Part shown: positions 4,223-7,624 of the stretch, piece by piece
Numbering within the stretch: the first letter of the stretch is position 1
Layout: every line of letters begins with the position of its first letter
NCBI RefSeq assembly: GCF_013620795.1
Contig: NZ_LGLW01000006.1
Span: 186,001 to 250,000 of the forward strand
Length of the DNA stretch: 64,000 nucleotides
Direction: 5' to 3'
Origin: Pseudomonas sp. Q2-TVG4-2
GTDB taxonomy: Bacteria; Pseudomonadota; Gammaproteobacteria; Pseudomonadales; Pseudomonadaceae
Translations under genes and position numbers: made by a program
Notes under the pieces: model-generated
What the model saw: the letters and a program-made list of their open reading frames with translations, nothing else
What the model was told of the DNA's origin: nothing
The model's database searches: none

Positions 4223-4300
4223 CCTACCGTAGGCTCGGCGGCGTTGTCGCCGGGCTTTCGCTTCGCTACGACGCGGCTACGCCAGACTACGAGAACGACG

Positions 4301-5446
4301 ATGGAATTCGAGAAACTGTTGCGCCTGATGGTGGAAAAGGGCGGCTCCGATCTGTTCATCACCGCTGGTGTGCCGCCTTCGATGAAGGTCAATGGCAAAA
4401 TCCTGCCGGTGAACAAGACACCAATGTCGCCGGAGATGACCCGCGAAACCGTGCATGCCGTGATGAACGAGCAACAGCGCCGCGAGTTCGCCGAAAACCA
4501 CGAATGCAACTTCGCCATCAGCGCGCGCGGCATCGGCCGTTTTCGTGTCAGCGCCTTCTATCAGCGCAATCTTGCCGGAATGGTGCTGCGCCGCATCGAA
4601 ACGAACATTCCGACGCTCGAAGAGCTCAAGCTACCGGACGTGTTGAAGAAGCTGGCGATGACCAAGCGTGGCTTGGTGCTATTCGTCGGTGCGACCGGCA
4701 CCGGCAAGTCCACGTCGCTAGCGGCGATGATCGGCTACCGCAACAAGAATTCCAGCGGTCACATCATTTCCATTGAAGACCCGATCGAGTTCATCCATCA
4801 GCACCAGAGTTGCATCGTCACTCAGCGTGAGGTCGGCATCGACACCGATTCCTTCGATGTGGCCCTGAAAAACACCCTGCGTCAGGCCCCTGACGTAATT
4901 CTCATCGGTGAGGTGCGGACCCGTGAAACCATGGATTACGCTGTGGCTTTCGCCGAAACCGGCCACCTCTGCCTGGCGACCCTGCACGCTAACAACGCCA
5001 ACCAGGCGCTGGACCGGATCATCAACTTCTTCCCTGCCGATCGTCAGCAGCAGGTCTGGATGGACCTCTCGTTGAACCTCAAGGCCATCGTCGCCCAGCA
5101 GCTGATTCCCACGCCGGATGGCAAGGGGCGCCGTGCTGTTATCGAAGTGCTGATCAACACGCCGTTGGCGGCCGATCTGATCCGCAAGGGCGAGGTGCAC
5201 GAACTTAAGTCACTGATGAAGCGCTCCACCGACCTCGGCATGCAGACCTTCGATCAGGCGCTCTACAACCTCTACGTGCAGGGTGAAATCACCTATGAGG
5301 ACGCTTTGCTCCACGCCGACTCGTCCAACGACCTGCGCCTGATGATCAAGCTGGGCTCGGAGACTGATGGCGAGCACCTGTCCAGCGTCTCGCAGGGACT
5401 GACCCTGGAAGCCAGCGACGACAATCCCGGTCGCAGCTTCCGCTGA
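4301..5446 (+). CDS. pilU: Type IV pilus retraction ATPase-like PilU
   Basis: Paralogue of PilT that assists retraction under load. The 381-residue protein has Walker A GATGTGKST (130-138), the Walker B region APDVILIGEVRTRET and the His box ATLHANNANQALDR, with a C-terminal tail longer than PilT. The start is the ATG at 4301 (MEFEKLLRLMVEKGG); an upstream in-frame extension lacks family similarity. Its stop codon abuts the stop codon of the convergent DUF4130 gene with no bases between. Confidence 0.97.
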   Translation: MEFEKLLRLMVEKGGSDLFITAGVPPSMKVNGKILPVNKTPMSPEMTRETVHAVMNEQQRREFAENHECNFAISARGIGRFRVSAFYQRNLAGMVLRRIETNIPTLEELKLPDVLKKLAMTKRGLVLFVGATGTGKSTSLAAMIGYRNKNSSGHIISIEDPIEFIHQHQSCIVTQREVGIDTDSFDVALKNTLRQAPDVILIGEVRTRETMDYAVAFAETGHLCLATLHANNANQALDRIINFFPADRQQQVWMDLSLNLKAIVAQQLIPTPDGKGRRAVIEVLINTPLAADLIRKGEVHELKSLMKRSTDLGMQTFDQALYNLYVQGEITYEDALLHADSSNDLRLMIKLGSETDGEHLSSVSQGLTLEASDDNPGRSFR

Positions 5447-6277
5447 TTAGATCTGTCCGGGCAGGCCGATGCGTTTACCCGGGCGGCTGGCAACACACTC
5501 GGCCTGGCCATCACGTTGGGCGCCGGCTCGGGCGCGGCTCATCAGCTGCGGAATTAACGGGCCTTCCGGCAGGTTTTTCCAGAAGCGTACGGGCAAGTTG
5601 CTCTGCATCACCTCGCGGTTGAGCCGTGCCGGGTTGAAGGTGCTTTCGTAGTAGGTTTTCCACAGTTGCGCGCCCGGATCTTGTGCGGTCTGTGCCAGCT
5701 GCCTCCAGGCGGGTGGGCAGGGCTCGGCGTAGTGCATGACCTGGCCATCCCATAGCACCGCGTCATCCGGTGTTGCGATCAGCCAGGAATGCAAGCCCAT
5801 CCGTTCGGCGAAATGGAGCGCCGCGCTGGGCAGGATATCGTGTGCAGGCTCGAACCAGGCCACATAGTCCGGGGCGTCTTTTGATTCCGTTGGACTGAAG
5901 CGGAGAAAGGCATGCAGATGGTGCGTTTCGCGGCGTACTGCCTTGATCCGCGCCTGAAGCTCGCTGCCATCGGCATCGCCGACCAGTCTCGCTGTTTGAT
6001 CACCTTTGGCGACTCGCCAGAGAATGCGATACAGCAAGCTCCAACGATCACCCGTGCGAAAGCGCGCAGCTGCCTCCAGTTCGGCTAGCAGTTGCCGTTG
6101 AATGCGTATCGGCCGGGGCTGCTCGATCAGCTCGAGCGCATCCGGCTGATCGAACAGACCACCCGGCGTGTCACCGCTTAGCCATTCCACCTGATGCGGT
6201 GCGACCCTGCCGAGCAGCAGACGGCGCGCGGCGGCGCGCCAACCATTGAAACTGCCATCAAAACGTACCTGGCGCAT
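5447..6277 (-). CDS. DUF4130 (TIGR03915-type) putative DNA metabolism protein, without a UDG domain
   Basis: A 276-residue protein with DUF4130 hallmarks: FDGSFNGW at the N terminus, IKAVRRETHHLHAFLRF, YVAWFEPAHDILPSAALHFAERM in the middle, and YYESTFNPARLN plus RFWKNLPEG near the C terminus. In many bacteria this domain is fused to a uracil-DNA-glycosylase-like UdgX module; here the chain ends shortly after the DUF4130 part. The ATG at 6277 overlaps the TGA of the upstream radical SAM gene by one base (TGATG), which implies translational coupling. A TTG at 6283 is an alternative start. The function is inferred to be DNA repair or modification together with the radical SAM partner; no activity is established from the sequence. 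Confidence 0.87.
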   Translation of the reverse strand: MRQVRFDGSFNGWRAAARRLLLGRVAPHQVEWLSGDTPGGLFDQPDALELIEQPRPIRIQRQLLAELEAAARFRTGDRWSLLYRILWRVAKGDQTARLVGDADGSELQARIKAVRRETHHLHAFLRFSPTESKDAPDYVAWFEPAHDILPSAALHFAERMGLHSWLIATPDDAVLWDGQVMHYAEPCPPAWRQLAQTAQDPGAQLWKTYYESTFNPARLNREVMQSNLPVRFWKNLPEGPLIPQLMSRARAGAQRDGQAECVASRPGKRIGLPGQI

Positions 6278-7500
6278 CACCAAAGCCCCATCTGTACGGG
6301 GCCTTCGCTGAGCTGCCGGCGCAAGGTGGCTGACTCACGGTAAGCCAGACTGGGTCGGTAGTCCTGGGTAATGACGAAAGGTTTGGCTTTCTCCAGCGAG
6401 CAGCGCAGGCGGGTCAGGTCTTCGAAGCGGATGTGCTTCTGCCGACGCAGGGCGACCAGGCGTTTGGCACTGAGTATCCCGATCCCAGGGACGCGTGCGA
6501 TCAGTGCGGGCTCGGCTCGGTTCAGATCCACCGGAAACTGGTCTCGATTGGACAGGGCCCAGGCCAGCTTGGGGTCGATGTCCAATGGCAGGTTGCCGGG
6601 GCCGCTGAGCAGTTCGCTGGCCTTGAAGCCATAGCCGCGCATCAGAAAGTCGGCCTGATACAGGCGATGCTCGCGCAGCAGCGGCGGTGCTTCGAAGGGT
6701 ACGGTCTTGGGGCTGTGCGGAATCGGGCTGAACGCCGAGTAGTAGACCCGGCGCAGACGGTAGTCGCCATACAGCGACTGAGCGGTATGGAGAATCGTGC
6801 TGTCGTCCGTAGCATCGGCACCGACGATCATCTGGGTACTCTGGCCCGCCGGAGCGAAGCGAGGCGCGCGTTTTTCCGCCTGGGCTTCGGTCTCGCCCTG
6901 GTGAATCGAACGCATCGCCTGTTTGATCGTCACGATCTGCTTCTCCGGCGCCAGGCGGATCAGGCTGGATTCGGTCGGCAGCTCGATGTTGACGCTGAGA
7001 CGGTCGGCGTAACGGCCTGCTTCTGCGATCAGAAGAGGGTCAGCATCGGGAATGGTTTTCAGGTGGATGTAGCCACGGAACTCGTGCTCCTCGCGTAGCA
7101 GCCTGGCCACGCGATTCAGCTGTTCCATGGTGTAGTCCGCCGAGCGAATGATGCCTGAGCTGAGGAACAGGCCGCTGATGCAGTTTCGGCGGTAGAAATC
7201 CAACGTCAGCGTCACTACCTCTTCCGGTGTGAAGCGAGCGCGGGGTACATCACTCGAGCGCCGATTAACACAGTACTGGCAGTCATACAGGCAGAAATTG
7301 GTCAGCAGAATCTTCAGCAGCGCTACGCAACGCCCATCCGGTGTAAAGCTGTGGCAGATGCCCATACCATCTGTGGCGCCGAGCCCGCTGCGGCCTTTCG
7401 AGCTGCGTTTTGGTGCGCTGCTGCTGGCGCATGACACGTCGTACTTCGCGGCGTCGGCCAGTACGCTGAGTTTCTCTATCAGTTGCATGAGGGCTGCCAT
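6277..7500 (-). CDS. Putative DNA modification/repair radical SAM protein (TIGR03916-type)
   Basis: A 407-residue radical SAM enzyme. The cluster motif is CLYDCQYC (C70, C74, C77), preceded by the family signature GICHSFTPDGRCVALLKILLTN. The N terminus ADAAKYDVSCASS is also typical. A helix-hairpin-helix-like segment (IARVPGIGILSAKRLVALRR) near the C terminus suggests DNA binding. The family occurs with DUF4130/UdgX proteins, and the downstream gene overlaps this one by one base. A second ATG at 7488 (MQLIEKLSVLAD) also fits the family start. A LexA-type palindrome lies only 4-19 nt upstream of the ATG at 7500, so SOS control is likely. The chemistry is unknown. Confidence 0.87.
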   Translation of the reverse strand: MAALMQLIEKLSVLADAAKYDVSCASSSAPKRSSKGRSGLGATDGMGICHSFTPDGRCVALLKILLTNFCLYDCQYCVNRRSSDVPRARFTPEEVVTLTLDFYRRNCISGLFLSSGIIRSADYTMEQLNRVARLLREEHEFRGYIHLKTIPDADPLLIAEAGRYADRLSVNIELPTESSLIRLAPEKQIVTIKQAMRSIHQGETEAQAEKRAPRFAPAGQSTQMIVGADATDDSTILHTAQSLYGDYRLRRVYYSAFSPIPHSPKTVPFEAPPLLREHRLYQADFLMRGYGFKASELLSGPGNLPLDIDPKLAWALSNRDQFPVDLNRAEPALIARVPGIGILSAKRLVALRRQKHIRFEDLTRLRCSLEKAKPFVITQDYRPSLAYRESATLRRQLSEGPVQMGLW

Positions 7501-7504
7501 AACA

Positions 7505-7520
7505 CTGTTTGTATGTACAG
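7505..7520 (-). promoter_or_regulatory. Candidate LexA (SOS) box upstream of the radical SAM/DUF4130 pair
   Basis: CTG-N10-CAG with an alternating AT-rich spacer; it reads CTGTTTGTATGTACAG on the plus strand. Over 20 positions it matches 16 of the E. coli-type LexA consensus, including both CTGT/ACAG ends. It lies immediately upstream of the start, where bound LexA would block the promoter or transcription start. A weak TTGTTC-N16/17 -35 element precedes it. Confidence 0.75.
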
Positions 7521-7624
7521 TATCACGATGGCGTGGCTGAACAACGCCCGCTCGGCAGAAGCTACAAGCAATCGGAATCGGATAAGCTCAACGGGCGTTA
7601 CCCAAACCAGACAGCGAGGCTCAG

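What the first reader, a model, noticed from the sequence alone, without database searches (positions are those of the whole stretch)
6277..7522. SOS-type LexA box on a radical SAM/DUF4130 DNA-repair pair that lacks the UdgX module
The sequence directly shows CTG-N10-CAG with 16 of 20 consensus positions just upstream of the radical SAM start, and a one-base overlap to a DUF4130 gene. Radical SAM proteins of this type and DUF4130 are known to occur with UdgX-like uracil-DNA-binding proteins. Here DUF4130 stands alone and the radical SAM protein carries a helix-hairpin-helix. Inference: an SOS-induced two-component system that processes an unknown DNA lesion and does not need UdgX.
Basis: partly seen in the sequence, partly recalled or inferred. 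Interest (0 to 1): 0.75.

Follow-up and report, generated by a model that had tools for sequence, protein, structure and literature searches.

The report
DNA-damage-controlled repair gene pair without UdgX
Two neighbouring genes for a DNA-binding radical enzyme and its partner sit under the cell's DNA-damage switch, which is conserved in about 80 related species and in distant bacteria that use a different switch sequence; the uracil-binding partner has been lost or decayed repeatedly, so the pair probably repairs something without it.

Summary
Observation confirmed, with corrections. The window has one LexA-type box (7503-7522, 16/20; none with 14 or more expected by chance) upstream of a TIGR03916 radical SAM gene, whose conserved start is 7488, not 7500. 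That gene overlaps a standalone TIGR03915/DUF4130 gene by one base. The box stands at the same place in 80/80 Pseudomonadaceae orthologues. In a phylum-wide sample, 24/29 other same-class loci carry the CTG-N10-CAG type. All 54 loci of the other class(es), inferred Alphaproteobacteria, carry the alpha-type LexA box GAAC/GTTC-N7 instead, and never the reverse. SOS control is therefore kept although the operator sequence changed. The genome has no UdgX. In the genus, 47/56 species have the radical SAM gene, but 3 have an intact-scoring UdgX fused to DUF4130, 2 a decayed one, the rest none. The radical SAM protein (dN/dS ~0.03) and DUF4130 (~0.13) stay under purifying selection without it. SOS control of the UDG-containing version is already published (Bacteroidetes; cited for Verrucomicrobia and Alphaproteobacteria); the UdgX-less gammaproteobacterial form was not found in the literature searched. 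Most likely: an SOS-induced DNA repair core in which UdgX is an accessory. The lesion and chemistry remain inferred.

The parts
7503..7522 (-). LexA-type (SOS) operator TACTGTACATACAAACAGTG, palindromic, CTG-N10-CAG
   Evidence: 16/20 to consensus, only site of >=14/20 in the window; same place in 80/80 orthologues
6277..7488 (-). Radical SAM protein, TIGR03916 (rSAM_link_UDG), 403 aa from the conserved ATG at 7488 (an alternative ATG at 7500 is not conserved)
   Evidence: TIGR03916 540 bits; start by comparison with 80 relatives
7270..7293 (-). CX3CX2C radical SAM [4Fe-4S] motif (CLYDCQYC; C66, C70, C73 counted from ATG 7488)
   Evidence: invariant in 140 aligned sequences
6406..6534 (-). C-terminal helix-hairpin-helix (PGIG) of the radical SAM protein
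   Evidence: HHH_3 28.3 bits, residues 323-365 of the 407-aa reading; P334, G335, G337 invariant
5447..6277 (-). Standalone DUF4130 protein, TIGR03915, 276 aa from ATG 6277; overlaps the radical SAM stop by one base; no UdgX domain follows
   Evidence: TIGR03915 200 bits, DUF4130 126 bits; next gene (4244-5446, + strand) is convergent

Best explanation
This is a two-gene, LexA-repressed, DNA-damage-inducible operon encoding the core of a little-studied DNA repair module: an HhH radical SAM enzyme (TIGR03916) and DUF4130 (TIGR03915). SHOWN: family membership, operon structure, conserved clade-matched LexA operators, absence of UdgX, purifying selection on both proteins in the standalone form. 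INFERRED: cleavage of LexA after damage derepresses the operon; the radical SAM protein binds DNA through its HhH and uses a 5'-deoxyadenosyl radical to convert or revert a damaged nucleotide; DUF4130 presents or further processes the substrate; in other lineages the UdgX domain fused to DUF4130 adds a uracil- or abasic-site trap to the same core, an accessory function that most Stutzerimonas and Pseudomonas have lost.
For: Box at the same place in 80/80 orthologues, 15-18/20. Swap test: 54/54 loci outside the window's class have GAAC/GTTC-N7 and 0/54 the gamma box; 24/29 same-class loci have the gamma box and 0/29 the alpha box; shuffled regions 0.1-0.4%. Own genome has lexA with two boxes of the same type. 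No UdgX over cut-off in own genome; in the genus 3 over cut-off and 2 partial among 56 genomes, 47 of which have the radical SAM gene. UdgX decay: the cross-linking His column is lost in L056, L073, L078, L180, L245 and L246. dN/dS about 0.03-0.05 for the radical SAM protein and 0.11-0.16 for DUF4130 among UdgX-less loci. Radical SAM Cys motif and three further Cys (C20, C45, C54) invariant in 140 sequences. Published SOS control of the UDG-containing operon (PMC8565304).
Against: No binding, expression or activity data exist for this locus here. Five same-class genomes keep the operon without a recognisable LexA box: f13 x3, whose lexA has the TTAGTAGTAATACTACTAA box; f33; and f2, which lacks a full LexA. 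So SOS control is not universal. The substrate is unknown; DUF4130 has no solved relative and no convincing fold match.
Confidence: 0.72

Rival explanations
1. The pair still works in uracil or abasic-site repair: another UDG-superfamily protein of the cell (the one at G000:C1:617.7 kb, or the 235-aa UDG-like protein at G000:C36:37.9 kb) replaces the lost UdgX in trans.
For: Two UDG-superfamily genes exist in the genome; the 235-aa type gives a weak hit in most of the 56 genomes of the genus.
Against: A weak UDG-like hit of the same kind is also present in congeners that keep a fused UdgX (G398, G399, G411), so it is not a replacement; the own copy scores 28 bits against the UdgX cut-off of 190.
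Confidence: 0.15
2. The operon is SOS-controlled but serves mutagenesis or translesion synthesis (a lesion-modifying step that helps SOS polymerases), as DUF4130 was once predicted to be a mutagenesis-related enzyme.
For: Prediction in PMC3765255; LexA control.
Against: No polymerase gene lies next to the pair in the window; no direct data.
Confidence: 0.15
3. The box controls the divergent TM2-domain gene (7625, + strand) rather than the radical SAM operon.
For: The box is palindromic and lies about 100 nt from the TM2 start; the TM2 gene is divergent within 600 nt in at least 46/80 relatives.
Against: The box follows the radical SAM start at 11-20 nt in all 80 loci, including those where no TM2 gene was detected upstream, and lies close upstream in distant genomes too.
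Confidence: 0.03
4. The box is a chance match.
For: It departs from consensus at 4 of 20 positions.
Against: 80/80 conservation and the swap test.
Confidence: 0.01

Closest known systems
COG1573-COG4277 (UDG + HhH protein) SOS operon of Bacteroidetes, cited for Verrucomicrobia and Alphaproteobacteria (PMC8565304)
   Same: LexA-controlled operon; COG4277 is, from my own knowledge, the older COG name of the TIGR03916 family (not tested here)
   Different: That operon has a UDG (COG1573) partner; here the UDG/UdgX part is absent. Gammaproteobacterial LexA control of this form was not found in the papers searched
TIGR03914/03915/03916 set of NCBIfam (UdgX, DUF4130 protein, radical SAM)
   Same: Two of the three members, above curated cut-offs
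   Different: UdgX missing from the whole genome
Spore photoproduct lyase / SplB and PA0069-type radical SAM proteins
   Same: Radical SAM proteins linked to DNA repair or SOS; a PA0069-family gene with a 17/20 SOS box exists in the same genome
   Different: Different family: the window protein matches TIGR03916, and no SplB or PA0069 model at E<=0.01; it has a C-terminal HhH and other invariant Cys residues
Mycobacterium smegmatis UdgX (solved structures, e.g. 6AIL, 6AJO)
   Same: Relative of the C-terminal domain fused to DUF4130 in some Pseudomonas and Stutzerimonas
   Different: Not present in this genome; in several relatives the domain has lost the cross-linking His and part of motif A

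Membership tests
TIGR03916 radical SAM (rSAM_link_UDG) | Score over curated cut-off | tested here: met
   539.8 bits against 343.5
TIGR03916 radical SAM (rSAM_link_UDG) | CX3CX2C [4Fe-4S] motif | tested here: met
   CLYDCQYC, invariant in 140 sequences
TIGR03915 / DUF4130 | Score over curated cut-off | tested here: met
   199.7 against 112.25 bits; PF13566 126 against 27 bits
UdgX (TIGR03914) | UdgX domain in the locus or genome | tested here: not met
   Best genome hit 28 bits against 190
LexA (SOS) regulon | Operator of the host's LexA type close upstream of the gene | tested here: met
   16/20 box 14 nt from the start; same type at the host's lexA
LexA (SOS) regulon | Operator conserved in relatives | tested here: met
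   80/80 Pseudomonadaceae; class-matched motif in 78/83 phylum-wide loci
LexA (SOS) regulon | LexA binding and RecA-dependent induction | not testable with these tools
   Needs bench work
COG1573-COG4277 SOS repair operon | UDG (COG1573) partner gene | tested here: not met
   No UDG gene in the operon; two-gene unit followed by a convergent gene
SplB / spore photoproduct lyase | Match to SplB-type models | tested here: not met
   No such model at E<=0.01 in NCBIfam
DHH/RecJ phosphoesterase (for DUF4130) | Fold or profile similarity | tested here: not met
   Foldseek E>=0.012, TM at most 0.34; hhalign against 24 RecJ-type proteins prob 0.1%

The most novel reading that the evidence does not exclude
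The radical SAM protein and DUF4130 are the catalytic core of an SOS-induced DNA repair pathway with radical chemistry on a lesion unrelated to uracil. UdgX is an accessory that is lost and inactivated independently, and a conserved UdgX derivative without the cross-linking His persists in some lineages as a non-catalytic domain.
Probability: 0.4. Interest if true: 0.75.

Novelty: new variant of a known kind. Interest (0 to 1): 0.55.

Why it matters
TIGR03915 and TIGR03916 are widespread (radical SAM gene over cut-off in 84 of 398 sampled genomes of the phylum) but no biochemical function was found for them in the papers searched, and thinking about them has been tied to uracil because of UdgX. 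Conserved SOS control under two unrelated LexA operators, with UdgX dispensable, says that the core pair answers DNA damage and points the search for its substrate away from uracil. The culturable UdgX-less Stutzerimonas and Pseudomonas species are the simplest place to test it.

Tried and rejected
1) DHH/RecJ-like nature of DUF4130: the AlphaFold2 model (pLDDT 83) gave many weak DHH-family hits in two libraries, but the scores are not significant and profile-profile comparison with 24 RecJ-type proteins gave no support; not used. 2) The radical SAM AlphaFold2 model failed (pLDDT 50) and was not searched. 3) A start codon at 7500: rejected. 4) A separate UdgX elsewhere in the genome: not found. 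5) Chance box: rejected. 6) A Xanthomonas-type LexA box for the f13 loci: their lexA promoters have TTAGTAGTAATACTACTAA, but the operon has neither box type. 7) A sigma-70 promoter scan around the operon found nothing. 8) Earlier reports: only PMC3765255 names DUF4130 and only PMC8565304 names COG4277; the Verrucomicrobia and Caulobacter papers it cites are not held.

Full report
WHAT IS THERE. On the minus strand the window holds a radical SAM ORF (TIGR03916, 540 bits against a curated cut-off of 343.5) and, overlapping its stop by one base (TGATG), a DUF4130 ORF (TIGR03915, 200 bits against 112). At 7503-7522 lies TACTGTACATACAAACAGTG, CTG-N10-CAG, 16/20 against the palindromic consensus. 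It is the only site of at least 14/20 in the 64 kb; shuffles give 0.03 such hits per 64 kb.

THE BOX IS REAL BY CONSERVATION. In the 80 nearest orthologues (Stutzerimonas, Pseudomonas, Halopseudomonas; radical SAM identity 77-95%), 80/80 have a CTG-N10-CAG box of 15-18/20 matches, 11-20 nt from the conserved start. The host's own lexA promoter has two boxes of this type.

SWAP TEST ACROSS CLASSES. In an evenly drawn sample of 398 genomes of the phylum, 84 have TIGR03916 over cut-off. Within 120 nt upstream of the radical SAM start, 54/54 of the latter carry GAAC-N7-GAAC or GTTC-N7-GTTC, the alpha-type LexA motif, and 0/54 the gamma type; 24/29 of the former carry the gamma type and 0/29 the alpha type. 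Shuffled regions give either motif in 0.1-0.4%. The operon therefore remains under LexA although LexA's operator sequence has changed completely. The five exceptions are three f13 genomes whose lexA promoter carries TTAGTAGTAATACTACTAA, one f33 genome, and one f2 genome without a full-length LexA.

UdgX. The own genome has no UdgX over cut-off: one 28-bit partial hit (cut-off 190) from a 235-aa protein of the UDG superfamily, plus one further UDG-superfamily gene. Of 80 close orthologues, 9 have DUF4130 fused to a UdgX-type domain (460-495 aa) and 71 have DUF4130 alone, in the same two-gene arrangement. In the genus, 47 of 56 genomes have the radical SAM gene; UdgX scores over cut-off in 3, partially in 2 (all five next to the radical SAM gene), and is absent from the other loci. 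On a tree of radical SAM + DUF4130 (142 rows) the label 'no UdgX' needs at least 8 changes, 6 forced by well-supported branches; the quick method was used, several long branches are uncertain, and the tree does not fix direction. Loss is the preferred reading because most deep branches are fused, and because decayed intermediates exist: against the solved M. smegmatis UdgX the column of the cross-linking His (H109, its role from my own knowledge) is changed in L056, L073, L078, L180, L245 and L246, and L056/L078/L180/L246 also lack six residues of motif A.

SELECTION WITHOUT UdgX. Among UdgX-less Stutzerimonas loci, dN/dS (Nei-Gojobori, synonymous sites near saturation, so approximate) is about 0.03-0.05 for the radical SAM protein and 0.11-0.16 for DUF4130. 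Residues invariant in fused forms are as well conserved in standalone forms, for example H121, R128, W143, E145, F216-N217-P218 and R220 of DUF4130 (numbered from the TTG two codons before the ATG) and C66/C70/C73, C20, C45, C54 and the PGIG hairpin of the radical SAM protein. This is what is expected if the pair functions without UdgX.

MECHANISM (INFERRED). LexA repression, relieved by RecA-stimulated LexA cleavage, follows from the operator (established SOS biology). An HhH on a radical SAM enzyme implies action on DNA. The three extra invariant Cys residues suggest an auxiliary Fe-S cluster or catalytic thiols. The most economical model is a radical-mediated conversion or reversal of a damaged nucleotide, with DUF4130 as partner; where present, UdgX adds uracil or abasic-site capture. 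The lesion is unknown. DUF4130 has no solved relative, and a weak DHH/RecJ structural hint was not borne out.

PRIOR KNOWLEDGE. LexA control of a two-gene COG1573-COG4277 operon (a UDG with, by my own knowledge, the TIGR03916 family under its older name) is described for Bacteroidetes and cited for Verrucomicrobia and Alphaproteobacteria in PMC8565304. Aravind et al. (PMC3765255) call DUF4130 a predicted mutagenesis-related enzyme associated with SplB-like radical SAM proteins and UDGs. The gammaproteobacterial UdgX-less form under LexA control was not found in the papers searched, but most subscription papers are not held, so 'not found' is not 'new'.

VERDICT. It is a new variant of a known kind.

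Noticed in passing
L111:1374-1393 (G000:C35, near 119.4 kb): A 15/20 SOS-type box (AACTGTATAAATACCCAGTC) lies upstream of, or just inside the longest reading of, a FAN1-like nuclease gene (FAN1_HTH, VRR_NUC, FANC_SAP domains), suggesting SOS control of FAN1 in this genome.
   Followed up: partly
L004:1499-1518 (G000:C39, near 89.7 kb): A 17/20 SOS box at the start of a PA0069-family radical SAM gene, a second and unrelated radical SAM gene with an SOS box in the same genome.
   Followed up: partly
L056, L078, L180, L246 (C-terminal part of the DUF4130 fusion): A recurring UdgX derivative that lacks the cross-linking His and six residues of motif A. It is 62-68% identical between lineages with dN well below dS; between L078 and L246 this part is more alike (68%) than the DUF4130 part (56%), which suggests transfer by recombination and a retained non-catalytic role.
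   Followed up: partly
L172-L174 (f13 genomes), about 20-45 nt upstream of the radical SAM start: A palindrome GGTCTCAT-CCA-ATGAGACC stands upstream of the operon where LexA boxes are missing; one copy per genome (two mismatches in G302) in three genomes. Possibly another regulator's site.
   Followed up: partly
L002:1499-1518 (G000:C7, near 31.4 kb): A 16/20 SOS-type box in a region without a clear downstream gene.
   Followed up: no
L203, L206 (and, less, L201, L204): In some genomes of the other class the radical SAM and DUF4130-UdgX genes are separated by 0.3-2.8 kb, so close coupling is not fixed.
   Followed up: no
G000:C36:37907-38500 (L238): A 235-aa UDG-superfamily protein that passes the Pfam UDG threshold but no curated NCBIfam cut-off, with similar weak UdgX-model hits in most of 56 genomes of the genus.
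   Followed up: partly
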